Source of the DNA: Holophagae bacterium
GTDB lineage: Bacteria; Acidobacteriota; Holophagae; Acanthopleuribacterales; Acanthopleuribacteraceae
Direction of reading: 5' to 3'
Length of the DNA stretch: 64,000 bases
Assembly (NCBI GenBank): GCA_029263455.1
Contig: JAJCXM010000019.1
Coordinates: 1-64,000, forward strand
In this document: piece after piece, positions 18,659 to 35,381 of the stretch
Position numbering within the stretch: the first letter of the stretch is position 1
How the letters are laid out: each line of letters begins with the position of its first letter
The notes under the pieces: generated by a model
Database searches by the model: none
Told to the model about the DNA's origin: nothing
The model's input: only the letters and a program-made list of their open reading frames with translations
Program-made: the position numbers and the translations under genes

Positions 18659-20671
18659 ATGAAACGCACGGTTCAGATCATCTCTGGCCCATTAGAGGGT
18701 CATTCCTTTACGATTGAGCACGGTAAACCTTTAACGGTCGGTCGCGGACCCCAAAACCATGTGGTTGTGGGCCACGATCCCTGTATGTCGACCAGTCACG
18801 CGATCTTACGGGTGAACCATCAACAATTTGAAGTGAGCGATCAGAGCTCATCAAATGGCACGTTTGTCGACAGCCACAAACTGAACCCGAACAAGTTCTA
18901 TCCGGTTAGTGATTTCCTTGTCCTGGGTTCCACGGTGATGACCATTCAGAAGACGTCTGAAGAAAACCACCTGACACCGGTTGGAGCAGACAATCCCAAA
19001 TGCAAAATATGGGAAAAATACGACGTCTACAACAAAGCGGTCGCCTATGCCCGCTCCGTGAAAGACCCCTATGTGGGCGTATTCCATCTGTTCATGGCAT
19101 TTAACGAGTTGCATCCCAAAGACGTCGCCCAATTCTTGAAGCCACTCGGACAAACGGCCAAAGACGTGGAGCTCCGCTGGAGTAAGAACCAGTATTTCGA
19201 GATACCTAGCCGTTGGTTAAACGATTTCGTCAAATTCCAGCTGACATCACAACCAGGAAACTCATTTTTTGTGACCCCAAAGGTGCAAGCCACCATGGAA
19301 ATACAAAACTTGATTGGCGACTTGGAGCCTGCCCGTTTCATAAAGTTATTGTTAGACGAAGACTACAACCTGCTATTTGCGCTGATGGACTGGCACGAGA
19401 ACAAACGCAAATGGTTCAGTGAACGAAAAACCAGTACCTCTACCAAGTCCCAGACGTCGACATTAGGGACGGGCCCATTAGATGCCGCGCAAGATTTGGT
19501 CTTGCCGCCTCAATTCTGGGCCGATATCGGCAATTCAGTGGCTCGCTCGGGCCTGGTCGTTATCCAAGGCAGCAAGGGCTGCGGCAAAACGTCCGTGATG
19601 CATAAGATGTTCCATCCGTTGGGCCATTTCCAGTTCCCACGCACCTTCGCGGAGGAACCTATTCTCTATGACTCCCGCGTGTTTGTGATCTTCAATAAAC
19701 CAGAGCATTTACGACTTTATGTGGATGCCATGATTCGGTCCTTAGCCAAGGATTGTGTGGTAGGTATTGACCACATAGATCATCTTTTGCAGTCGCTGCA
19801 AGAATGCTATTTGGATCGTGGACCACTGATCCACGCGATTCGCAATCGCCGCGCCAATTTGGTCGTTTCCATTCGTGACATCCACATTCAGATGATCCAT
19901 GATTTGTTCAAAGAGATGGCCGTGCTTGAATTGGATCGCTATGTCACCGAAGTCAACCACGAGATCCACGCTAGATTACTCAAGAATTTCGAACACAACG
20001 TGCGCTGCCTGGTTTCCAACGAGGCCAGAGAATTTTTCAACGAATTCATTGTTCAACCTTCGCCAAACAATATCGACGCACTGGAAGATTACCTAAACTT
20101 GTGCGCCAACCGTTCTCACGGCATCAATTTCCCTTTCAAAGAGTTGGCCGAAGAGACACGCGCCATGGGTATGCTAGGCAAAGCCTTCTTTCGTGACGTC
20201 TACGACGAGTGGATTGGGAAGACCAAAGCAACCACAAGTAAACAGCCGATCGTAACGCGGGCACCAAACCCGGAAAATCAACAAATCGATGTGCTCATTC
20301 AACTGGAAACCCTTGTCCAGACATTTGTCAAAAACGAATTCAAAGTGTCGTTGCATTACTCAGATCAAACCCGCAGCCTCACTGAAGAACGGATGTTGAC
20401 TCAAGAACAGAAGATTGAAGAGCTCAAATCACATATGGTTGTGCTACTGACCGCTTATCAATCGAGTTTTCGACATTGGTTTGACACCTTTTGGCCACGC
20501 TTAGAACCAGAATCACTCAAACAGGTTCCTGGCGTAGGTAATAACGCCAAGAAGTTATGGGCCGAATACGTGAATCGAGCTAACTTAATCGATACTGCAT
20601 ATGCCGAAGACCATTTCCATGAAGTCGCAGCCCGAGTCTTTATGGATATGTGGAAGTCACGCCGTACCTAG
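18659..20671 (+). CDS. FHA - Clp_N-like - AAA-type ATPase protein of the T6SS locus
   Basis: The 670-residue protein begins with an FHA domain (GRGPQNHVV near 29, SSSNGTFV near 63-70). Residues about 115-250 resemble the double Clp_N repeat of ClpB/ClpV (AVAYARSVKDPYVGVFHLFMAF and FFVTPKVQATMEIQNL). Then comes a P-loop GSKGCGKT (304-311) and a Walker-B-like CVVGIDHIDHLL (366-377) with His instead of the catalytic Glu. The C-terminal 130 residues are helical. FHA domains read phospho-threonine. The convergent neighbour is the sheath-fusion gene, whose stop codon directly abuts this one. I know no characterised T6SS protein with this order; a scaffold or regulatory ATPase is my guess. Confidence 0.75.
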   Translation: MKRTVQIISGPLEGHSFTIEHGKPLTVGRGPQNHVVVGHDPCMSTSHAILRVNHQQFEVSDQSSSNGTFVDSHKLNPNKFYPVSDFLVLGSTVMTIQKTSEENHLTPVGADNPKCKIWEKYDVYNKAVAYARSVKDPYVGVFHLFMAFNELHPKDVAQFLKPLGQTAKDVELRWSKNQYFEIPSRWLNDFVKFQLTSQPGNSFFVTPKVQATMEIQNLIGDLEPARFIKLLLDEDYNLLFALMDWHENKRKWFSERKTSTSTKSQTSTLGTGPLDAAQDLVLPPQFWADIGNSVARSGLVVIQGSKGCGKTSVMHKMFHPLGHFQFPRTFAEEPILYDSRVFVIFNKPEHLRLYVDAMIRSLAKDCVVGIDHIDHLLQSLQECYLDRGPLIHAIRNRRANLVVSIRDIHIQMIHDLFKEMAVLELDRYVTEVNHEIHARLLKNFEHNVRCLVSNEAREFFNEFIVQPSPNNIDALEDYLNLCANRSHGINFPFKELAEETRAMGMLGKAFFRDVYDEWIGKTKATTSKQPIVTRAPNPENQQIDVLIQLETLVQTFVKNEFKVSLHYSDQTRSLTEERMLTQEQKIEELKSHMVVLLTAYQSSFRHWFDTFWPRLEPESLKQVPGVGNNAKKLWAEYVNRANLIDTAYAEDHFHEVAARVFMDMWKSRRT

Positions 20672-22225
20672 TTATTCGATGCCGACTACCACATCGGGAC
20701 ACAGGCCAAAAATAGTGAAGCTGGGTTTGACGCGGAAATAGGACTGTCCGTCCTCTTGCTCCAAAACCACATCCTCTTCCGCTTTGGCACCGACGAACTC
20801 TTTGATTTTGGCGATCGCATCCGCCTCGCCGGCCACAGACCGAATATAGCGAGACAAGCAGCCAACAAAGAATGAATAGCTAAGCGTGAATTCAACAAAG
20901 TCTCTTGCGCCAGGAGACTGTCCTATGCCAATTTTGACGGTGGCAAGACAGTTCATGCCGAGGACGGTGAGGCGCTCGCCGGATTCGGTGCCCGTGAAAC
21001 TACAGAAGCCTTCGTAACCAAGTTCGCTTGCCTGTTCTTCGCTTAAGATAATGGCCGAACCGCCAGCGTCATCCAAGCGACCATGAGGTCCCATCAACTC
21101 ACCGGGCCAAATACCACGAGCCAGTACTTTCGCTAAGACGGAGGCAAACACAAACGAGCCCGCTGCCAATACCTGTTCTGATTGATCTTCGCCGTCTTTG
21201 ACGACCTGTTCATTGACACACACAAATAGCCAACGGGAACCTAGCTCATCGCGCTGTTTCCGCCACTTGGCATATTCGGGACCACTTACGCGACCGCTAT
21301 AGTCGCGAATATGTTGTAGGAGACGGGTATTTCTAGCACCAAAAATTTGAGGATCTGCGTTCATCAGAAAGGGTACGGCTAGTGACTCGGACATGCGTCC
21401 CAGGTGATGGAGAATATGCAGGTCGGAGTCTGTCTTTTGAAACGCAAATGTTGTGAGAAGCAAATCAATTGAGGCGGGATCACCTTCTTCGGGTTTGATG
21501 AAGGTTAAGAAAGTGGCATCGCATAACTCGTCCTTAGGACAATCAATCAGGCTCAAAGACACGTTCTTTTCGGTGGCTGCATGCAGATTCTTCAGGCCAC
21601 GCCAATGGGACTCTAAAGAGACATATTCCGCACTTTTCATAACCTGATTAGCCGCATCATCAACGATAGTTATGACTTCACTAGCCGCCGCTTCGCGCTT
21701 GTGGCCTGTGAATTTTGACGCTGAGAAGACCTTCTTGACGTATTTCAGCTGGGGACCGGTTTCCTCGGCAGCACCCAAATCGACCATGTTTAGCAGATCC
21801 AATGCTTCGCCTTCAGTGAATTGGGAAGCCATCGTTTTCAGTACATTGAGTTGAGGATGCTTGGCAACCATGTCATCCACATCAAGTGGGTTATCTTCCG
21901 ACGCTTGGCGTAACGAATTTGAAAAGGCGGTCAGATCGTTGAGAAAGGCGATTTGACTGGTGATGCCTTTTAACGAGAAATCGGCTAAGCGAGCAAAGAC
22001 GATGCGGTTCTCAAAATCACGCACACCTTCAAGCGAGATGGTCACGGTGATGGCGGGTTTTAATTGCTCAAAGAGGCCATCCCATGAGTTGCGATTAACG
22101 GCCATCAACGGGTAGGCCGATCGCTCGTCAGTCAACCCTGAAAAGTTACCTAAACAAGTGAAATGAAACTGTAACTCGTCAACGGGTCGTGCGTTTCCAA
22201 TTGCTGGCTGGATATCTACCGTCAT
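20672..22225 (-). CDS. TssB-TssC-like fusion sheath protein
   Basis: The N-terminal 150 of 517 residues follow the TssB pattern: ELQFHFTCLGNFSG, PLMAVNRNSWDGLFEQLKP, then ARLADFSLKGITSQIAFL. Residues about 195-517 follow TssC: SAEYVSLESHWRGLKNLHAAT, LIDCPKDEL, then an MGPHG-like loop and a final strand VKPSFTIFGLCPDVVVGIE. The gene is the last of the sheath operon, 9 bp after the activator gene. In phage tails and Afp-type machines one protein makes the sheath, whereas T6SS uses two, so a fused form is striking. The sequence is far from both partners, so a cap, adaptor or minor sheath subunit is more likely than a main one. Confidence 0.75.
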   Translation of the reverse strand: MTVDIQPAIGNARPVDELQFHFTCLGNFSGLTDERSAYPLMAVNRNSWDGLFEQLKPAITVTISLEGVRDFENRIVFARLADFSLKGITSQIAFLNDLTAFSNSLRQASEDNPLDVDDMVAKHPQLNVLKTMASQFTEGEALDLLNMVDLGAAEETGPQLKYVKKVFSASKFTGHKREAAASEVITIVDDAANQVMKSAEYVSLESHWRGLKNLHAATEKNVSLSLIDCPKDELCDATFLTFIKPEEGDPASIDLLLTTFAFQKTDSDLHILHHLGRMSESLAVPFLMNADPQIFGARNTRLLQHIRDYSGRVSGPEYAKWRKQRDELGSRWLFVCVNEQVVKDGEDQSEQVLAAGSFVFASVLAKVLARGIWPGELMGPHGRLDDAGGSAIILSEEQASELGYEGFCSFTGTESGERLTVLGMNCLATVKIGIGQSPGARDFVEFTLSYSFFVGCLSRYIRSVAGEADAIAKIKEFVGAKAEEDVVLEQEDGQSYFRVKPSFTIFGLCPDVVVGIE

Positions 22226-23730: not shown

Positions 23731-26313
23731 CTAGGAGAATTCCAGGGTAAAGGAACCATCTTCATGGCCGATGGTCAATTGTTCACCCACGTCACCATCC
23801 ATCAGCTGAGCAAGAATCTCGTTTGCAATGAGTGGCAGCAGTTCGCCGTTAATGATGTGATCGATATTACGAGCGCCAGCCTCAACCAAACGACACCGAT
23901 CCGAGATGGACTGGATGACGGCTGGCTCTACTTTGGTAGTCACGCCATGATTGTTCTTCAAGCGCACAACTACTTTACGCAGCTTCAAACCCACAATGCG
24001 TTTCATCACTTTTTCCGAGATTGGGAAGTAAGGTAAGACCGTCATGCGTGCGATCAGAGCGGGCTTCAAGAATTGGTTCAACGTCGGACGGATGGCTGTC
24101 AATAATTCCTCGACCTCTGGCCATTCGTCGCCTGAACACATGTCTTCAATGATCTGACTACCCAAGTTACTGGTCATCATGATAACGGTATTACGGAAAT
24201 CAATGATGCGGCCTTCACCATCCGCCAAATGCCCTTTATCGAACACCTGGTAGAAGAGGTTCATGACGTCTGGATGCCCTTTTTCCACTTCATCTAACAA
24301 GACCACCGTGTAAGGTCGCTGACGGACTGCTTCAGAAAGAACTCCGCCCTCTCCGTAGCCGACATAGCCTGGAGGTGAGCCAATCATGCGGGAAACCGTG
24401 TGTTTCTCCTGGTATTCGGACATATTGATCTGAACGACGAAGCGTTCGCCACCGAATAAGGCATCAGCTAGAGTGAGTGCCATCTCCGTTTTACCGGTAC
24501 CCGAAGGTCCCACGGCTAGGAAGACACCGATCGGCGTATCGGGATTATTTACTTTAGCTTTAGATGCTTTGATGGAACGAGCAATGCGTTCAGCTGCATG
24601 ATCTTGACCCAACACCCGTTCTTTAAGTTTATCTTCAACCCGAATGATATCGGAGAGTTCGTTCTTAACCATTTTGCCGACCGGAATACCGGTCCATTGG
24701 CTCACGATTGTGGATACGGTTGGCGCCGTCACACGGTACTCAACCAAACGATTGTCACCAGCCGTGCTCTCCAGTTTCGTTTGCTGTTCTTTCAATTGTT
24801 CTGCAAACCCAGGTCGGCTAGCATCGTCCGCGTCGTTAATTTGAAGTTCTAGTTCAACGATTTGGGTGACGATCTCTTTTTGAGCTTCCCATTTTGATTG
24901 GATGTCGTCACATTCGGTCTTTAATTCAGTTAGCTTACTCTCTAGATCTGGAATAGCTTTATGGGCCACTCCAGTTAACTCAACTTCATGTTTCTTATCA
25001 TCAATTTCACGTTCTAAGTTGATGATGTGATTCTTTAATGACGTCAGTTCAAAAGGCATGGAGTTGAGCGAAAGACGGACCCGAGCGCAGGAAGTATCCA
25101 GCAAATCGATGGCTTTGTCTGGTAACTGACGGCCCGAGATGTATTTTCCAGCTAACATGGCAGCGGCTTCGATGGCCGAATCCACAATCTTCACTTTGTG
25201 ATGGTCTTCGTATTTGCTCTTGATGCCGCGTAACATGGCGGTCGCTTTTTCTACGCTTGGTTCATTGATCTTGACGACCTGGAACCGGCGTTCCAGAGCC
25301 GCGTCCTTCTCTATATACTTCTTATATTCTGACCAAGTGGTCGCCGCAATGGTCCTTAGTTGACCGCGAGCCAGTGCAGGCTTCAATAAGTTAGCCGCAT
25401 CGCCCGAACCAGCAGCGCCGCCAGCCCCAATTAGTGTGTGCGCTTCATCGATGAAAAGGATGATGGGCGTAGGAGACGCCTGCACAGAATCGATGACGTT
25501 CTTTAATCGGTCCTCGAATTCGCCTTTCATGGAGGCGCCAGCCTTAAGTTGACCTAGATCCAAATTTCGGATTTGAACTTTCTCCAGCACAGGCGGCACG
25601 TTGCCTTCAGCTACCTGCAAAGCCAAGCCCTCAACAATGGCAGACTTACCTACGCCTGGCTCACCTACCAGGATTGGGTTGTTCTTGCGACGGCGGGTAA
25701 GGATATCAATGACTTGGTGGATTTCATGGTCTCGGCCAATGACAGGATCCACGCGGCCTTCGCGGGCTTCGGCAACCAAGTCGACCGTGAATTCGTCTAA
25801 GATGCCGGCACTCTCTTTTGAGGTCACTTTCTTGACAGCCACTTCTTCGCTTGCTTGGGTTAATTCTTCGAAACGAGCCGCGACATCGGAGTCATTCGCG
25901 CTCAAGAAAGCGGTAATCCCCGAGCCTGTCACCCACATCTTGTCGCGCAACAGAGCAACCACAAAATGGCCTGAGCGTACTTTGCTTTCTGACCGTTCTA
26001 AACTGCCAAAGTTCCAGGCCTGTGCGATCGATTCCAATAAGATGGAAGAAAAACGTGGTTTCGAAAAATTACCGTCTTTCAAAGAGACGAGTCCCTTTTC
26101 GACATCGGCACGAATGGATTCCACATTGGCACCAAGTGCTTCCAACATCACGGACGCGTCTGAACGTGGATTATCGAGTAGTTTCAACAACAAGTGTTCG
26201 ACAGAAATTTCGAAGTGACTTCGTTGAATACAAGTGCCCGCAGCGGCTTCCATCGCTTTGGTCATGGTTCCATTCAATTTTCCAATCAATGCCTTAATAT
26301 TCTGAGCATCCAT
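23731..26313 (-). CDS. tssH: T6SS recycling ATPase ClpV
   Basis: The 860-residue protein has a Clp_N domain (1-150), AAA1 with Walker A GEPGVGKS (217-224) and Walker B ILFIDEAH (285-292), a ClpB-like middle coiled coil (about 420-510), AAA2 with GPSGTGKT (602-609) and [11 protein letters not shown], and a C-terminal D2-small domain. Length is usual for ClpV. ClpV disassembles the contracted sheath by pulling on the TssC N-terminus. The gene is in the middle of the sheath operon, 3 bp after tssC2. The N-domain starts with [21 protein letters not shown], as in ClpV rather than ClpB. Confidence 0.93.
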
Positions 26314-26316
26314 GTC

Positions 26317-27660
26317 TTACTCCTTACTGCGAGGTAACTTTGATATAAGTGTTAATTCGGCGTTCACGCCTTCTAGTTGAAGATGGGGTTGCAGGACCAA
26401 ATGAAGATCAAAAAAGCCCGGATTACTGGGATCTTCACTCACCTTGACGCTTCCGCCACTTAAAGGGAAACGACTTCGGATGTCGATGTTGGGATCGGGC
26501 ATCGATGTTACTAATTTTTTTAACCATACCGAAAGTTCATTCTCCAACTGTTGCGATTCTTTCACCGTGCCAACGTTCTCCCGTTGAATCACTTTCTGAT
26601 AATGGGCAATACGTGAAACCAGATAGATATACGGCAAGCTTGCTGCCAGCCGATCGTTGCTGTTGAAGCTCCTTGACCGATCACGGAGATAACTCTGAAT
26701 CGTAGGCGCTGAAAAGACACAAGGTCGTTGTAATTCTTTGAAATAGTTTAACACGATCAGACCCTGTTCACTTAGCTTGTGTTCCTGATAATCAGAGAAG
26801 ACAATCTCCATGGGATAACGCGTCAATTCGTAACCGTGACAGCCTATCGGCATGGGTGTCATCTCTTCTAATAACCCGCCTGTTCGAGGCCCCCGAATAT
26901 GCACACACCAGCCAAACTTAGAGAAGCTATGACTGAGGATCATGGCAAAGCCATAGGTTGCAAACGTCCAGCTGAAGTCGTTGATATCTTCGGCTTTTTC
27001 GTTGAATCGATAGCTTTCAAAGACATGTTGGTCGTAGGGACGGCGCGCAAGTAAACGCGGTAGTATGAGCGCCAAGTAGCGGGCGTCTTCGCTGCTTCTA
27101 AGTGCTCGCCACTTGGTAAACTCGCGCGCCTCAAATAAGAGATCAAAATCTTCGATTTCTTCAACCGCATGGTAGTCGCGCGCATTGAATAGATCGGGAG
27201 ACGCATTGGCCACCGCCGGGCAATGGCAGCTGGCGGCCACCTTGGAAATCATCTTCAGCAAATTTAGATCGGAAGCTTTGTTGGCGAACTCGTATTGCAA
27301 CAACACACTGCCGTATGGCTCGCCACCGGCTTGATCATATTCGGTTTTGTAGAGGTGGAAAAAGAGGCCGCTGTCGCTTAGATCGAAGAATTCTTCAAAA
27401 TCATCTAAGAGCGCCTGCTTGGACGCATTAAGCATCTCGATTTTTACCAGCGGTAAGTCGCCAATGTCATCGGCAACCATGGCAAGACCAATCCAGGAAG
27501 ACTCCATCTGTTGAAACCTAGGGTGATGAATAATCTCGTTGAGTTGGCCCTCAACGGCAATATTGATCTCCATGATGACGCTGTCCAAGTAGGTCCAGAT
27601 CTCGTCTTGATCCCCTTCGAGAATCGTCGTCAAATGCTCAAATATGGTCTCGCTACTCAT
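26317..27660 (-). CDS. Second TssC-type sheath protein, N-terminally short
   Basis: The 447-residue protein aligns with the whole of TssC from the helix that leads into PRFQQMESSWIGLAMVADDI onward, including EYDQAGGEPYGSVLLQYEF, KWRALRSSEDARYLALILPRLL, WCVHIRGPRTGGLLEEM, QRENVGTVKESQQLENELSVWLKKLV and the C-terminal LQPHLQLEGVNAELTLISKLP. Compared with the main TssC it lacks about 60-70 N-terminal residues, where ClpV binds and where neighbouring subunits interlock. It overlaps tssE by 8 bp, in the same operon. It could form a special ring at the base or end of the sheath. Confidence 0.85.
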   Translation of the reverse strand: MSSETIFEHLTTILEGDQDEIWTYLDSVIMEINIAVEGQLNEIIHHPRFQQMESSWIGLAMVADDIGDLPLVKIEMLNASKQALLDDFEEFFDLSDSGLFFHLYKTEYDQAGGEPYGSVLLQYEFANKASDLNLLKMISKVAASCHCPAVANASPDLFNARDYHAVEEIEDFDLLFEAREFTKWRALRSSEDARYLALILPRLLARRPYDQHVFESYRFNEKAEDINDFSWTFATYGFAMILSHSFSKFGWCVHIRGPRTGGLLEEMTPMPIGCHGYELTRYPMEIVFSDYQEHKLSEQGLIVLNYFKELQRPCVFSAPTIQSYLRDRSRSFNSNDRLAASLPYIYLVSRIAHYQKVIQRENVGTVKESQQLENELSVWLKKLVTSMPDPNIDIRSRFPLSGGSVKVSEDPSNPGFFDLHLVLQPHLQLEGVNAELTLISKLPRSKE

Positions 27661-28075
27661 ACTGGTTTACCACAAACGCATCGGCAGATCCGTCACGTAA
27701 AACCTCTGTTTGGAAGGTGATGCGAGACACGCGGCTGCCCTCTTTTACTTCACCCACAATATGGTACGTGGCTCGAAATGTATCTGTCGCTTTTTCAACA
27801 AACTTAACGTGCACTTTCACCAAACGCGGTTCGTATTTCTCTAACGCTTTCTGTATTTCCAAACCCAAATGGTCCAATGACTTAGGCAAAGAAGAATAGA
27901 CATAGTGAATATCGGGAAGGCCGAAATCTGGAATGTGACCAACCATGCCTTGTCGCGTATTGAGGATCTGGATTAGGTTTGCCTGGATAGATTCAATTAG
28001 GCTTTCCTCTTGATTGAGCCTCAAATTCTGACCCGTGATCTTTTTCAGGAAATTATAGCCGTGGTTGAGTGTCAT
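27653..28075 (-). CDS. tssE: T6SS baseplate protein TssE (gp25-like)
   Basis: The 140-residue protein contains the gp25/TssE features: SLIESIQANLIQILNTRQGMVGHIPDFGLPD and the conserved EPR motif in EKYEPRLVKVHVKF. TssE sits in the baseplate and starts sheath polymerisation. It overlaps tssG by four bases and the downstream tssC2 by eight, so translation is coupled. The length is normal. Confidence 0.9.
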   Translation of the reverse strand: MTLNHGYNFLKKITGQNLRLNQEESLIESIQANLIQILNTRQGMVGHIPDFGLPDIHYVYSSLPKSLDHLGLEIQKALEKYEPRLVKVHVKFVEKATDTFRATYHIVGEVKEGSRVSRITFQTEVLRDGSADAFVVNQYE

Positions 28076-29001
28076 AACGGACCCCCCAGAACGACCAGCG
28101 CAGCTTGATCAGCCGCACCACTTAAAGCCCAGCAATTGGCACTCAAAACGCGATTCCCCAGTTGCATTTTCGGAATTTCATCGGCTCTCAGCTCCAATTT
28201 AAGTCCACACGCCCATTGATCTTCAGTATAGGACTTCACGATGCCGGATACGAGTTCGTGCCAATCGCCGCCCGGAAGGAAACGCATGTAGCTGGCGTAG
28301 TCAAGATCGGCCACTTTAATTGAGAATCGTCCATTAATGTCGCGAATGCGCGTCCCGATTAGCATATTTCCCTGTTTGCCTATGGCCAGTTTAAAGTCGC
28401 CACCTAGTTTGGCGCGCTGAAATGAGGGGATGGGAATGAACCTTTCTTCGTGCTCTTCAAACTCGAAGTCCACACCGTCAAAGAAGGAAGTCAGCACATT
28501 GGCCAGGCCTAGCACGGTCTTTTCGCGCCTTTGATAAAGAGAAAAATGATGTCGACGCAAACACTTGATGTACAACGGAATTTGGTCTTCATGTGAAGGA
28601 ACACCAGCCAGTGCACGTAGAAACTGGTCGAATTCTTGGTTGTCAGTCTCTTTGGCTTCCACACCATTCTCAAGAAAGATCTGCGATGAGCGCCAAATAT
28701 CGAAGAGCGCTTCAATGATGCGGTGATTAAAAATGTCGAGGAAGTCTCGCAGCGCGTTAACTTCATCCGTTTGATGCAGTATTTCATCGGAAAAGTAACC
28801 GGGCAGGGCCCCGAGTCCGCCGTATAGTCCCTCAAAATTGATGCAGACATTCCACTGCTCATCCGTACGTTCTACATGCTCAACCACGCGCGGTTCAAAT
28901 ACCCGACTTGGACTCTGAATGACTTTAAGCGTCGCGTTGTGATCGCGTGCTTCGCGTTTCAGCCGTCGTAACTCTTGAAAAAGATGGTCAATATTTATCA
29001 T
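28072..29001 (-). CDS. tssG: T6SS baseplate protein TssG
   Basis: The 309-residue protein has the TssG pattern: FEGLYGGLGALPGYFSDEI, LRDFLDIFNHRIIEALFDIWRSSQ, and a C-terminal half with FQRAKLGGDFKLAIGKQGNMLIGTRIRD. TssF2-TssG1 form the wedge of the baseplate together with TssE and TssK. It is located 2 bp after tssF and overlaps tssE. Length is usual (300-340 residues). Confidence 0.88.
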   Translation of the reverse strand: MINIDHLFQELRRLKREARDHNATLKVIQSPSRVFEPRVVEHVERTDEQWNVCINFEGLYGGLGALPGYFSDEILHQTDEVNALRDFLDIFNHRIIEALFDIWRSSQIFLENGVEAKETDNQEFDQFLRALAGVPSHEDQIPLYIKCLRRHHFSLYQRREKTVLGLANVLTSFFDGVDFEFEEHEERFIPIPSFQRAKLGGDFKLAIGKQGNMLIGTRIRDINGRFSIKVADLDYASYMRFLPGGDWHELVSGIVKSYTEDQWACGLKLELRADEIPKMQLGNRVLSANCWALSGAADQAALVVLGGPL

Positions 29002-29003
29002 GG

Positions 29004-30737
29004 TTAATAGGACGCGATGTGGGTCAACCGATCAGACTGATCAGAGTTGGTAACAACCAATCTAATAAAGGAGTTGATCGGTGAATAGGCGCGCAAGAAA
29101 TGACCAAACACCTGTGAAAACAGAGCTAAATCGCCATCGTGCTGAAAATAGCTTTCAGAACAGTTGATTTCCATCAGTCGTCCGGCCACGCTTTGTCCAA
29201 ACATGATGAGGTGGTCTTTGGCGTCGTGAACTTTATTGATGCCCATAATCTTGCGCTTGCCTGACTCACTCTGTGGAATGTTGTAGAGCTCTAATAGACG
29301 GCGTACGCCCTCAGTCGAGGCAAGGTCAGTGAAGTTCAATGCGAGATGGGAAATAAAGTCCCAGTCACCTTTGGTGTGAATTTCCGGCCAATAAGCTTTG
29401 GTCGCTTGCGTGATGTTACGAGCCGATATGGTTTCGGGCACATCTTGAGAGGGCTGATTGATTTGGCCGATCTTAAGGCTTTGAGCAAAGTGTCGGTTTG
29501 TACAGCGCGTATTGACTGAGATCACCTGGTCACGCAACGCGTCTGGGCTCTCATCATCAAGATCAAGAAATCGAATATAGGTCTCCCAGCCCTGTTCAAA
29601 GCTTTTCTCACGCCGTAAGGTATAAAACCAACGTTTATCTGAAGCGACGCCAGCATGAGAGAACTGGTAATAAGGACGAACGTCCGATCGTAGCTGTTCC
29701 TTACTTGCCAGGACGCGATCCAGAGAGAAAACCTCAAAGTCAGGACGAGTCAGGTCAGGACTAATCAAATATTCAATCTGTTTACCTGTCACCTTAAAGG
29801 GTTCACAGGGTTTCAAAAAGACGTTCTGAACAGGACAACAGAATAACTTCAGCGAGTCATTGCGGTACTGGTAGCCCGACGAGAAGGGTTTCTTAAAGAT
29901 AAAGTTAATTTGAAAAGATGTGAGGTCTTTGGCCTTTGGCATCAGGTAAGGTCGCAGTCCCTTTACCTTGAAAAACAGGAACTTCTGTGGGAAATCAAAA
30001 TAGTCACGCAAGTGATGAAGCTGCGAGAAATGGTGATCCTCATCCTGACTTAGGCTGTGGTCGGATTCGAAGCCAGACCATTGCAGTTCCAAAGTACCAG
30101 GAACGGTTGCCACACCTTTGATTTCGATTCCTTGCACGAATCGAGACATTTGATGGTAGAGCTCATAGCTGGCGCTAGGGTCGCCGTGAATATAGAACTC
30201 GATGGCTTCCCAATCGAGCGATTCCGCTTGAGCGCCCGGATGCAATTTGAATTCGGCCGAAAGTGAAAAATCCGCTCTCGTGTCCGGATCCACAAAAACC
30301 CTACTCAATGTGATCGGTTGTACAACAACTTCTTGAGTCGTTGTGAACTCGTAGCGTACGCCTTTCGGACCAACAGGATCACTAAAAACCGGTGTTGAGC
30401 GAGCGATGTTGACCGGTTTATCGAGCATACTCTCTTGCGGCGTAAATTGGACAATTGTTTTGGTGGGAAGCGGCCGCAGGTAGGCTGGATAGATTAAGTT
30501 GAAGAGTGAATGCACCAACTCAGAGAATTGATGTCCCATAAAGCGGCGCAGCCGCCCAATAAGAAACGCAAAGCCTTCGAGTATGCGCTCAGAGTGCGGG
30601 TCCCTTAGCTCGGGATTAAGACCTTCGAGCCCGAGATAGCGCGCAATATCGGGATGACGAGTTGCAAATACCTGGCCTTCTTTGGCCAGGTACCGCAGCT
30701 CTTCTTCGTAGTAGATACGATCGTCACGAGAAACCAT
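29004..30737 (-). CDS. tssF: T6SS baseplate protein TssF
   Basis: The 577-residue protein starts YYEEELRYLAKEGQVFATRHPDIARYLGL, then DPHSERILEGFAFLIGRLRRF and LVHSLFNLIYPAYLRPLPT, all hallmarks of TssF. The middle has beta-domain segments (TLSRVFVDPDTRADFSLSAEFKL). Length is typical. It lies between tssC and tssG in the minus-strand operon. The ribosome-binding site is weak (GAGAACC), so coupling to tssC may help. Confidence 0.9.
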   Translation of the reverse strand: MVSRDDRIYYEEELRYLAKEGQVFATRHPDIARYLGLEGLNPELRDPHSERILEGFAFLIGRLRRFMGHQFSELVHSLFNLIYPAYLRPLPTKTIVQFTPQESMLDKPVNIARSTPVFSDPVGPKGVRYEFTTTQEVVVQPITLSRVFVDPDTRADFSLSAEFKLHPGAQAESLDWEAIEFYIHGDPSASYELYHQMSRFVQGIEIKGVATVPGTLELQWSGFESDHSLSQDEDHHFSQLHHLRDYFDFPQKFLFFKVKGLRPYLMPKAKDLTSFQINFIFKKPFSSGYQYRNDSLKLFCCPVQNVFLKPCEPFKVTGKQIEYLISPDLTRPDFEVFSLDRVLASKEQLRSDVRPYYQFSHAGVASDKRWFYTLRREKSFEQGWETYIRFLDLDDESPDALRDQVISVNTRCTNRHFAQSLKIGQINQPSQDVPETISARNITQATKAYWPEIHTKGDWDFISHLALNFTDLASTEGVRRLLELYNIPQSESGKRKIMGINKVHDAKDHLIMFGQSVAGRLMEINCSESYFQHDGDLALFSQVFGHFLRAYSPINSFIRLVVTNSDQSDRLTHIASY

Positions 30738-30752
30738 GAATAGTTAGGTTCT

Positions 30753-32264
30753 CTATTTATCTTTACCTTTCGGCATCTTTGAGACCAGCGAGAGAGCGAC
30801 GTTCACACCTTCCACTTGGAAGTGGGGGCGAATGAACATCTCAACGTTGTACCAACCCGGTGATTCCGGGATGTCGGAAACGTTAATTTTTGCTTCTCTC
30901 AGTGGGCGTTCAGCTTTCAGTTCGGCACCCGCATTTGGCATGGTGGTAACCAGTTTCTGAATCCAAATATCCAGCTCTTTCTGTAGGTCAGCCTTCTCTT
31001 TGGCGGCCCCGATATTTTCGCGTTGGATCACCTTCAGGTAATGCGAGAGGCGGGACGCCAGGAACAGGTAAGGTAGGTTAGAAGAGAGCTTGGCGTTGGC
31101 CGTTGCTTCAGCAGTGTTGTATTTCTTAGGTTTCTGCGTGGATTGTGCAGAAAAGAAACAGGCATAGTCTCTATTCTTATAGAAGGTTAACGGGATGAAG
31201 CCCGCTTCCGCCAGTTCCAGTTCTTGACGATCAGAAATCATGACCTCGGTAGGAATCTTGATTTTCTGTTCGCCTTCGTCTTCAAACATATGCAGCGGTA
31301 AATCGTCTACGACGCCGCCAGCTTGAGGTCCGCGGATATTCACACACCAACCATTCTTACCGAAGCTTTCGGTAAGCCGACTAGCAAAGGCCATGGAGGC
31401 ATTGCCCCACAGGTAACGGTCGTGTTCTTTGCCAGTGACACTCTCGGTGAAGTTGAATGTCTTGGTCGGATTGTTTTCTGGATCATAGGGTGATCGCAGT
31501 AGGAATCGCGGGAAGGTTAAGCCCAAGTAGCGCGCATCTTCGCTCTCGCGCAAAGCTCGCCATTTCGTGTATTCCATCTGACCAAAAAGGTCTTCCATGT
31601 CCTTGACTTTATGTAGGTCAGGCGCGGAATCGAGCCCAAACATATTGGAGTCAATAGAACCGATGAAGGGGCAATGACAGCCAGCCGCGATGCCAGACAT
31701 GTTCTTCAACATCGCAATATCGGCATTTGTCTGGTTGAAATAATAGTTACCTATGACGGCACCAATCGGTTCACCACCGGCCTGGTCGTACTCTTGTTTA
31801 TAGATATGTTGGAAAATGCCTGACTGTAATAACTCAGGAGCGTCTTCCATATCCGAACGCAAGTCTTCTTTGGAAAGATTAAGAAACTCAATCTTGATAT
31901 TGGTACGGAAATTAGTGCGATCAATGAGGAATTTCAGACTGCGCCACGAAGACTCCATTTTTTGGAAGTCTTCGTTGTGCATGATCTCGCTAACTTGGGA
32001 ACTCAGCTTGCCATCGAGCTCTTTAATGAGGCTATCGATATGGTCGCGATCAAGTTTTTCCACTTTCTGGCCAGACGACATGAGCGCTGAAATGAAGTGG
32101 TTAACGGCTGTCGCTATTCTCTGACTCTGATCGGCGCCTTCAACTTGGGAAGCACGCCCAATTCCCGCTTTTGGTGCCGCAAGATCGACTTTGTCCAACA
32201 GACTCTCGAGCAGGGAAAATTCCTGTTCTTGTCCTTGAGCTTGTTGTTCTTTGGACTTCGCCAT
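30753..32264 (-). CDS. tssC: T6SS sheath large subunit TssC (VipB)
   Basis: The 503-residue protein begins with the segment FSLLESLLDKVDLAAP near 17-32, which matches the position of the ClpV-binding helix of VipB, and continues with HFISALMSSGQKVEKLDRDHI, EDFQKMESSWRSLKFLID, KEYDQAGGEPIGAVIGNYYF-like core, QAGGVVDDLP, and the C-terminal IRPHFQVEGVNVALSLVSKMP. Size and motifs are standard. TssC pairs with TssB to form the contractile sheath. ATG 32264 has AGGAGA upstream. Confidence 0.93.
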   Translation of the reverse strand: MAKSKEQQAQGQEQEFSLLESLLDKVDLAAPKAGIGRASQVEGADQSQRIATAVNHFISALMSSGQKVEKLDRDHIDSLIKELDGKLSSQVSEIMHNEDFQKMESSWRSLKFLIDRTNFRTNIKIEFLNLSKEDLRSDMEDAPELLQSGIFQHIYKQEYDQAGGEPIGAVIGNYYFNQTNADIAMLKNMSGIAAGCHCPFIGSIDSNMFGLDSAPDLHKVKDMEDLFGQMEYTKWRALRESEDARYLGLTFPRFLLRSPYDPENNPTKTFNFTESVTGKEHDRYLWGNASMAFASRLTESFGKNGWCVNIRGPQAGGVVDDLPLHMFEDEGEQKIKIPTEVMISDRQELELAEAGFIPLTFYKNRDYACFFSAQSTQKPKKYNTAEATANAKLSSNLPYLFLASRLSHYLKVIQRENIGAAKEKADLQKELDIWIQKLVTTMPNAGAELKAERPLREAKINVSDIPESPGWYNVEMFIRPHFQVEGVNVALSLVSKMPKGKDK

Positions 32265-33578: not shown

Positions 33579-34790
33579 CTATTCTACAAATCCCAGCTCT
33601 CGGTTTAGGTCCGCTCTGAACTGAGACCAGCTCTGTTGTAGCTCTGGTAGCGCCAACCAACCGTGGCGAGCGCGTTCTGCCTGATCGATAAGGAGATCCA
33701 GTTTTTCGGCTAACCTCTTGAGGCCAGCATCTAATTGGTCATTATGTTCATTGGAAGACTCGATTGTTTTGGTGGCATTAATGATTTTTCTCAAACGGTC
33801 ATAGTGAACGGAAAGTCGTCCTTCAAGTTCAGCGATATTCGATTCCGTGGTGGTCACCGACCATCTATTTAAGGCGCGCTCTATTTCCTTTAACAGTTTC
33901 CTAAGTGAATCGTTGTCGTGTCTCTCTTCTCGGACTCGGTACAAGGCGACACGTAATTCACTCATGTGCCAATCCAGTTTGGATGGGTCGGCCTCAGCCA
34001 CCTTTCCTGCCGTTTTCTGTATCGACGAAGCCTGTTCACTGAGCTCAAATAAGCGCTGCCTCAAGTAAGTGTGGGTACTTCGGCCAGCTTGTGCGCTTGC
34101 GCGCTGAGCCGCAGCGGCGAGACGCTCAACAAAGGTGGCCACATAGCTAGGTGTTTGTAAACTGACATCGCGCTCAATCATTGAAAAGGTGTCAGATACG
34201 GTGCTGGCTGACTGCCCATCAGCATGATCTCGCCGGGCTGTGCGCACAAGCGCTAAGACTAGCTGTGCGCCTTGCAGTTCAACGACTTTATCGGCCTTAA
34301 AAAAATGTTTTTCTACCAAGCGGATATCATTCAGGTTGATGACCACAAAACGATCGCTTGATTCACCAAAGTCGTCGATCGAGAGTTGAATCGCTTCATG
34401 AGTGCCCGTGATCCACTCAAATTTAGATACATCCTCTTCACGGACGTCGATCTCTAACGTTTGAATTGGCTTGGGCTGCAATTCGCAATATTCACTGTCT
34501 TTAAATTGAAAGGTTGAGAGACGATCACTGGGTAGATCTAAATTGCAGACCAACAGTCTGCGCGACTGGCCATCTATTCTAATGTCGACCACAATCTCTT
34601 CAGAACCGCTGGCATCAAATTCACCGCCGATTACCAACTCATCTACGCGCATGAAATAGGCATCGCTGTCGTTAGACTTTCCGGTCAAGAAGCTCGCGGG
34701 CCCTTGCGCCCACAACGTCACAGCCAAGTTGGCCAGACAAACGACAAGCAGTATTCGAAAACAAGCGATCGGGTCAAAGCGTTTATTCAT
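33579..34790 (-). CDS. Exported coiled-coil protein of unknown function
   Basis: The 403-residue protein has a signal peptide (FRILLVVCLANLAVTLWA-Q). Residues 40-170 are beta-rich (VDELVIGGEFDASGSEEIVVDIRIDG), and residues 190-400 are helical with repeated heptads (ERLAAAAQRASAQAGRSTHTYLRQRLFELSEQASS and DAGLKRLAEKLDLLIDQAERARH). No enzymatic motif is visible. It lies between the two T6SS operons on the minus strand, but nothing ties it to secretion. The function is unknown. Confidence 0.6.
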   Translation of the reverse strand: MNKRFDPIACFRILLVVCLANLAVTLWAQGPASFLTGKSNDSDAYFMRVDELVIGGEFDASGSEEIVVDIRIDGQSRRLLVCNLDLPSDRLSTFQFKDSEYCELQPKPIQTLEIDVREEDVSKFEWITGTHEAIQLSIDDFGESSDRFVVINLNDIRLVEKHFFKADKVVELQGAQLVLALVRTARRDHADGQSASTVSDTFSMIERDVSLQTPSYVATFVERLAAAAQRASAQAGRSTHTYLRQRLFELSEQASSIQKTAGKVAEADPSKLDWHMSELRVALYRVREERHDNDSLRKLLKEIERALNRWSVTTTESNIAELEGRLSVHYDRLRKIINATKTIESSNEHNDQLDAGLKRLAEKLDLLIDQAERARHGWLALPELQQSWSQFRADLNRELGFVE

Positions 34791-34889: not shown

Positions 34890-35381
34890 TTGTCCAACAC
34901 ACTGAGCACCTATTTATGCGATCACTTAAGCGATACCCGCAAAGTAACCCAAGAAGTGCTGGTGACCGCGCTGTTCACCGTCCACAAATGGAAAACAGGC
35001 AACGCAGACGGCGCACCTGATCAAATTAAAGATGCACTTGAAGCCGAGAAGTTTGACGACAAAGTCATGGACCTCATTCAGCAATACCTAATCTCGTTTG
35101 CCAAGCTAAGCGGCTCAGGTAATTTATTCCAATTGTGCCTCGACGTTTTAGGCGAATACGCTGATCCCCGTATCCAAATGCAGCTAACTGAATGGCTACA
35201 GGCACGGGTGCAATCCATGATTACGGCCAACCGTGAAGCGTATCAGTTAACGCGCTTGATTGAGTCGATGGGCGAACTGGTCTTTGACGATCCACAACGG
35301 GAAGTGACAGACATTAATCTCAACGTCAATGATTGGCGCCGATATTTGCGTGACAAAACGGGAAGCAGACTACCTTGGTAA
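34890..35381 (+). CDS. Hypothetical cytoplasmic protein (163 aa)
   Basis: The start is a TTG at 34890, with AAAAGG just upstream. The product is alpha-helical (IQQYLISFAKLSGSGNLFQLCLDVLGEYADPRIQMQLTEWL) and ends NVNDWRRYLRDKTGSRLPW. There is no signal peptide or membrane segment. The next gene starts at the base after the stop (TAAATG), so the two are in one operon. I do not recognise the family. Confidence 0.6.
   Translation: MSNTLSTYLCDHLSDTRKVTQEVLVTALFTVHKWKTGNADGAPDQIKDALEAEKFDDKVMDLIQQYLISFAKLSGSGNLFQLCLDVLGEYADPRIQMQLTEWLQARVQSMITANREAYQLTRLIESMGELVFDDPQREVTDINLNVNDWRRYLRDKTGSRLPW

What the first reader, a model, noticed from the sequence alone, without database searches (positions are those of the whole stretch)
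20672..22225. A natural TssB-TssC-like fusion in a T6SS operon
The 517-residue protein follows the TssB pattern in its first 150 residues (GNFSG, VNRNSWDGLF, ADFSLKGI) and the TssC pattern in the rest (VSLESHWRGL, final strand VKPSFTIFGL). The operon also has ordinary tssB and tssC. T6SS sheaths are normally built from two proteins, whereas phage tails and Afp-type machines use one. This could be a dedicated cap, base ring or adaptor of the sheath.
Basis: partly seen in the sequence, partly recalled or inferred. Interest (0 to 1): 0.75.

Follow-up and report, generated by a model that had tools for sequence, protein, structure and literature searches.

The report
Fused sheath protein beside ordinary T6SS
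A bacterial type VI secretion (molecular harpoon) gene cluster makes, besides its two ordinary sheath proteins, a third protein in which shortened versions of both are joined in one chain like a phage sheath; it is conserved and found almost only where the harpoon itself is present, so it is probably a special ring or adaptor of the sheath.

Summary
The 517-aa minus-strand ORF is a real, conserved gene whose N-terminal part is TssB-like (profile comparison 97.4%, E 1e-11) and whose remainder is TssC-like (99.5%, E 1e-22). Its AlphaFold model resembles single-chain sheaths (Afp, PVC, pyocin, eCIS), which align across residues 16-508, whereas TssC chains align only from about 161. The host belongs to Acidobacteriota (Acanthopleuribacterales). 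All 7 genomes of its family have the gene at the end of the same operon; dN/dS is about 0.08. One-chain fusions occur in 24 of 396 sampled Acidobacteriota (10 families), all 24 also with ordinary TssC, sometimes unlinked to it. It is therefore an accessory T6SS component, not a replacement sheath. A TssB/TssC fusion was published once (TssCL, roseobacters, 1,684 aa, PMC9515649); the Acidobacteriota form is compact, has one copy of each half, and falls in a different tree group. Its function is untested. Shortened donor arms with retained acceptor strands best fit a terminal sheath ring (about 45%); a ClpV- or assembly-directed adaptor is the main rival. Verdict: new variant of a known kind.

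The parts
20672..22225 (-). TssB-TssC fusion protein, 517 aa
   Evidence: ORF; Pfam VipA+VipB (orthologues); hhalign; conserved in 7/7 family genomes
21902..22216 (-). TssB-like half, residues 4-108
   Evidence: PF05591 residues 4-107; hhalign vs TssB 97.4%; pLDDT 86-94 in the full model for residues 21-130
21773..21802 (-). Residues 142-151 LDLLNMVDLG: corresponds to the TssC N terminus, the ClpV-docking helix in V. cholerae VipB (LLDEIM)
   Evidence: hhalign TssC match starts here; L144, L145, M147, D149, G151 invariant in orthologues; motif from PMC4239648
20675..21799 (-). TssC-like half, residues 143-517, shorter than TssC
   Evidence: hhalign 99.5%; VIA Z about 13 to TssC chains; alignment
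20678..20770 (-). C-terminal strands 486-491, 494-499, 512-516, equivalent to TssC acceptor strands and a shortened donor strand
   Evidence: AF2 secondary structure; alignment to TssC C terminus; strand roles from PMC5807055
22235..23707 (-). GAF-sigma54 activator-HTH regulator, directly upstream in the operon
   Evidence: Pfam; synteny
23731..26313 (-). TssH/ClpV
   Evidence: TIGR03345 1119 bits
26317..27660 (-). second, short TssC (TssC2)
   Evidence: PF05943+PF18945; TIGR03355
27653..28075 (-). tssE (name from sequence and operon position; no family scan done)
   Evidence: conserved operon position in the 7 family genomes
28072..29001 (-). tssG (name from sequence and operon position; no family scan done)
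   Evidence: conserved operon position
29004..30737 (-). tssF (name from sequence and operon position; no family scan done)
   Evidence: conserved operon position
30753..32264 (-). ordinary TssC
   Evidence: PF05943 419 bits + PF18945; TIGR03355 666 bits
32312..32872 (-). ordinary TssB
   Evidence: PF05591 174 bits
44200..45798 (+). TssA (ImpA_N + VasJ)
   Evidence: Pfam
18659..20671 (+). FHA-AAA protein, convergent neighbour; homologue in 7/7 family genomes, adjacent only in the window's genus
   Evidence: Pfam; genome searches

Best explanation
The gene encodes a dedicated accessory sheath protein: a TssB-like and a TssC-like half joined in one chain, folding like a phage/Afp-type single-chain sheath subunit. 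Shown: both halves, conservation, operon membership, co-occurrence with ordinary TssC. Inferred: it does not build the main sheath, which TssB/TssC form, but makes a specialised ring at one end of the sheath (base ring on the TssEFGK platform or distal cap). It keeps the strands that accept a neighbour's arm, while its own donor arms (N-terminal TssB strand, C-terminal TssC strand) are shortened, so it can join a sheath end without passing the handshake on. The retained ClpV-helix-like segment would let it be recycled, or be recognised, by ClpV.
For: Both halves by profile. tblastn matches an adjacent Vibrio tssB-tssC gene pair co-linearly. AF2 pLDDT 86-94 for residues 21-130 and 83-92 for 161-270; single-chain sheaths align 16-508 with Z 11.5-13.4, TssC chains only from about 161 to 508. 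7/7 family genomes, same operon place. dN/dS 0.076-0.088. 24/24 sampled Acidobacteriota with a one-frame fusion also have ordinary TssC, against 34 of the other 372; in family f22, 34 of 38. Shortened arms in the alignment read with the strand map of PMC5807055.
Against: No experiment or complex model. Much of the C-terminal half of the model is weak (pLDDT mostly 33-58 for 301-450). TssA is already present, so there is no obvious vacancy for a cap. In families f18 and f22 the fusion is not near the TssC match, and the f22 form lacks VipB_2, which argues against a sheath-ring role there. Genomes of one phylum are not independent, so the co-occurrence P values overstate the case.
Confidence: 0.45

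Rival explanations
1. Soluble regulator or ClpV adaptor: it mimics a sheath protomer, does not enter the sheath, and binds ClpV or TssB/TssC to control assembly or recycling.
For: Conserved segment corresponding to the TssC N-terminal ClpV site; f22 fusions have NLLDAI in the same place, lack VipB_2 and lie away from the TssC gene yet track T6SS presence; the gene sits after clpV and a sigma54 regulator.
Against: The window-type protein keeps the C-terminal strands used for sheath interlacing, unnecessary for a simple decoy.
Confidence: 0.27
2. Chaperone or stabiliser of free TssB, TssC or TssC2 before assembly.
For: TssB and TssC41 of Agrobacterium stabilise each other (PMC3702570); a second TssC without its own TssB is in the operon.
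Against: No direct evidence; a protein that already holds both halves has little need of a free partner.
Confidence: 0.12
3. Alternative main sheath: under some conditions it polymerises alone as a phage-like single-chain sheath.
For: Single-chain sheath fold match over 16-508.
Against: Always accompanied by ordinary TssC in the phylum sample; donor arms shortened, N-terminal arm nearly absent in L046/L047.
Confidence: 0.08
4. Decaying duplicate of tssB-tssC without function.
For: Fast divergence: 35-51% identity between orthologues against 65-93% for TssB and TssC.
Against: dN/dS 0.076-0.088 and intact frame in every family genome.
Confidence: 0.03

Closest known systems
TssCL of roseobacters (Leisingera sp. 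ANG-M7; PMC9515649)
   Same: TssB and TssC domains in one chain, additional to ordinary tssB and tssC; function unknown.
   Different: TssCL is 1,684 aa with two VipA domains and one VipB; the two relatives read here are 1,205 and 1,063 aa with long extra N-terminal regions. The window protein is 517 aa with one of each and keeps a TssC-like C terminus. Separate groups in the tree; one joint clade neither shown nor rejected (p-AU 0.19).
TssB/TssC (VipA/VipB) T6SS sheath
   Same: Homologous halves, order and fold.
   Different: One chain; shortened arms and loops; TssB C-terminal helix region and the QRENIG segment of TssC missing.
Single-chain sheaths of Afp, PVC, R-pyocin and eCIS
   Same: Fold aligns across both halves, Z 11.5-13.4.
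   Different: Sequence is T6SS-type; identity to these chains 5-9%; sits in a T6SS operon with ClpV.
Second TssC paralogues (TssC40/TssC41 of Agrobacterium, PMC3702570; TssC2 of this window)
   Same: Extra sheath-type gene in a T6SS cluster.
   Different: Those are TssC only; this one carries TssB as well.

Membership tests
TssC (PF05943 / TIGR03355) | PF05943 match above cut-off | tested here: met
   73.4 bits vs 27
TssC (PF05943 / TIGR03355) | TIGR03355 equivalog cut-off (271.5 bits) | tested here: not met
   68.5 bits: not an ordinary TssC
TssC (PF05943 / TIGR03355) | VipB_2 (PF18945) C-terminal domain | tested here: not met
   No match up to E 1, although terminal strands are present in the model and alignment
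TssB (PF05591) | PF05591 above cut-off | tested here: inconclusive
   Window protein 19.6 bits, below 24; orthologues 25.2, 27.9, 24.4
TssB (PF05591) | Profile-profile match to TssB | tested here: met
   97.4%, E 1e-11
TssB-TssC fusion proteins (TssCL kind) | TssB and TssC domains in one uninterrupted frame, with ordinary tssB and tssC kept | tested here: met
TssB-TssC fusion proteins (TssCL kind) | TssCL architecture proper: two VipA domains and long extra regions | tested here: not met
   One VipA, one VipB, 517 aa
Single-chain contractile sheath (Afp/phage type) | Fold of both halves in one chain | tested here: met
   VIA Z 11.5-13.4 over 16-508; full-length model only; the isolated TssB half did not fold (pLDDT 46)
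Single-chain contractile sheath (Afp/phage type) | Polymerises into a contractile tube | not testable with these tools
   Needs purification and microscopy
ClpV substrate | Binding of the TssC N-terminal helix to the ClpV N domain | not testable with these tools
   Only the segment's position and conservation were seen

The most novel reading that the evidence does not exclude
T6SS machines of many Acidobacteriota, and some Proteobacteria, carry a third sheath component: a compact single-chain TssB-TssC protein that forms a distinct terminal ring, so that a two-protein sheath is started or ended by a phage-type one-chain subunit.
Probability: 0.35. Interest if true: 0.7.

Novelty: new variant of a known kind. 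Interest (0 to 1): 0.55.

Why it matters
T6SS sheaths are taken to be built from two proteins, and how a sheath is started and ended is not fully settled. A conserved one-chain sheath homologue that accompanies the two-protein sheath in ten sampled Acidobacteriota families gives a concrete candidate for an end component. It also bridges the two-chain T6SS sheath and one-chain phage/eCIS sheaths, and shows that TssB-TssC fusion, published as TssCL, is not a roseobacter peculiarity. Cultured hosts exist (Acanthopleuribacter pedis, Sulfidibacter corallicola).

Tried and rejected
Chance or mis-called ORF: rejected (orthologues in 7/7 family genomes, dN/dS about 0.08). The full-length plasmid hits in Vibrio sp. 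THAF were separate tssB and tssC genes in one frame, not fusions; G073 and many f22 hits with one stop inside are read here as the same case. TssC2 N-terminal extensions in L044 and L048 checked for another TssB domain: none. Replacement of a missing TssA: rejected, TssA is present. Isolated TssB half folded alone: low confidence (pLDDT 46), not informative. Viral structure library: nothing at E 0.001. PADLOC: no match for the fusion; one weak match for the FHA-AAA protein. Rfam: no match at gathering score. The first tree contained two wrongly chosen frames (C_L067, C_L025) and was rebuilt without them. Literature was searched only in open-licence PMC papers (8 searches), so an earlier report elsewhere cannot be excluded.

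Full report
Observation. ORF 20672-22225 (minus strand) encodes 517 aa with a plausible ribosome-binding site. It has two homologous parts. Residues 4-107 match PF05591 (TssB/VipA) at 19.6 bits, just under the cut-off of 24, while three orthologues pass it; the second part matches PF05943 (TssC/VipB) at 73.4 bits. Profile-profile comparison settles both: 97.4%, E 1e-11 with TssB over residues 6-108, and 99.5%, E 1.2e-22 with TssC over residues 143-463. The TssC alignment starts at DLLNMVDLG, which lines up with the N terminus of the window's own TssC (LLDKVDL), where ClpV docks in V. cholerae VipB (LLDEIM, PMC4239648). As an independent check, tblastn aligned the protein co-linearly to an adjacent, separate tssB-tssC gene pair of Vibrio.

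Host and conservation. Orthologues lie in Acanthopleuribacter pedis, Sulfidibacter corallicola and related MAGs. All 7 genomes of the family have the gene (35-51% identity to the window protein in the other six) and none outside it in the class has a full-length match. The order tssB-tssC-tssF-tssG-tssE-tssC2-clpV-sigma54-fusion is the same in all. dN/dS is 0.076 and 0.088 in two pairs. The FHA-AAA neighbour has a homologue in all 7 genomes but is adjacent only in the window's genus.

Fold. AlphaFold2 with 8 sequences gave mean pLDDT 70; residues 21-130 score 86-94 and 161-270 score 83-92, while 301-450 is mostly poor. Foldseek's top three are TssC chains (E 2e-6 to 5e-6), followed by TssB chains at weaker E-values (0.08 and above, probability 0.84-0.99). 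In VIA alignments TssC chains cover about 161-508 at most, whereas single-chain sheaths (Anabaena CIS, Streptomyces CIS, Afp, PVC, pyocin) cover 16-508 at Z 11.5-13.4.

What is kept and lost. Against TssB plus TssC (read with the strand map of PMC5807055), the fusion keeps the central sheet region of both, the ClpV-helix-like segment and the C-terminal strands. It lacks most of the TssB C-terminal helix region, several TssC loops and the QRENIG segment, and its N-terminal and C-terminal arms are shorter; in L046/L047 the N-terminal arm is nearly gone. That these arms are the handshake donors is taken from the paper; their effect here is inference.

Distribution. In a sample of 396 Acidobacteriota, 24 genomes of 10 families carry a fusion in one uninterrupted frame and all 24 also have ordinary TssC, against 34 of the other 372 (Fisher P 7e-23). 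In the families other than f18 and f22 the fusion lies on the same contig as a TssC match. In family f22 it is unlinked; in the locus scanned by Pfam (L075) it lies between mnmE and mnmG and lacks VipB_2. 38 of 119 f22 genomes have it and 34 of these also have ordinary TssC; the other four are 62-90% complete assemblies in 360-800 contigs. These P values ignore relatedness.

Relation to TssCL. A 2022 paper described TssCL, a 1,684-aa roseobacter protein with two VipA and one VipB domain, as an apparent TssB-TssC fusion found only in certain roseobacters/Alphaproteobacteria (PMC9515649). Plasmid searches here found such proteins in Leisingera (1,205 aa) and Qingshengfaniella (1,063 aa), and a 592-aa one in the betaproteobacterium Eleftheria terrae. 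In the tree, the window type groups with the fusions of G423 and G259, and the f22 fusions group with TssCL. One origin for all is neither shown nor rejected (p-AU 0.19); long branches make the window-type grouping unsure.

Interpretation. The protein is an accessory component that goes with an ordinary two-protein sheath, not a replacement. Kept acceptor strands with shortened donor arms favour a terminal ring; the ClpV-like segment and the unlinked f22 relatives favour an adaptor or regulator. I rate these about 45% and 27%. I found no functional test of any such fusion in the papers searched.

Noticed in passing
window 26317-27660; L044:3907-5805: A second, shorter TssC in the operon; in Acanthopleuribacter-type relatives it carries about 190 extra N-terminal residues rich in acidic residues, with no Pfam match.
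   Followed up: partly
L075:8852-10369 and the other f22 loci L074, L076-L079: TssB-TssC fusion lacking VipB_2; in L075 it lies between mnmE and mnmG, away from the T6SS genes, yet it tracks T6SS presence in the family.
   Followed up: partly
L091:6459-9650 (and L090:7944-9722 tail): TssCL-type proteins carry many acidic LDDLL-like repeats that resemble the ClpV-docking motif of TssC; could be multiple docking sites (inference from sequence).
   Followed up: no
f22 tssB-tssC pairs, e.g. G359:C70:38819-40390; L050:14947-16941: tssB and tssC often lie in the same reading frame with a single stop between them, an easy route to fusion.
   Followed up: no
window 33579-34790 and 34890-35381: Two genes inside the T6SS cluster without any Pfam match at E 0.01.
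   Followed up: no
window 18659-20671: 670-aa protein with FHA, weak AAA and weak T6SS_FHA_C matches; homologue in all 7 family genomes, mostly far from the fusion gene.
   Followed up: partly
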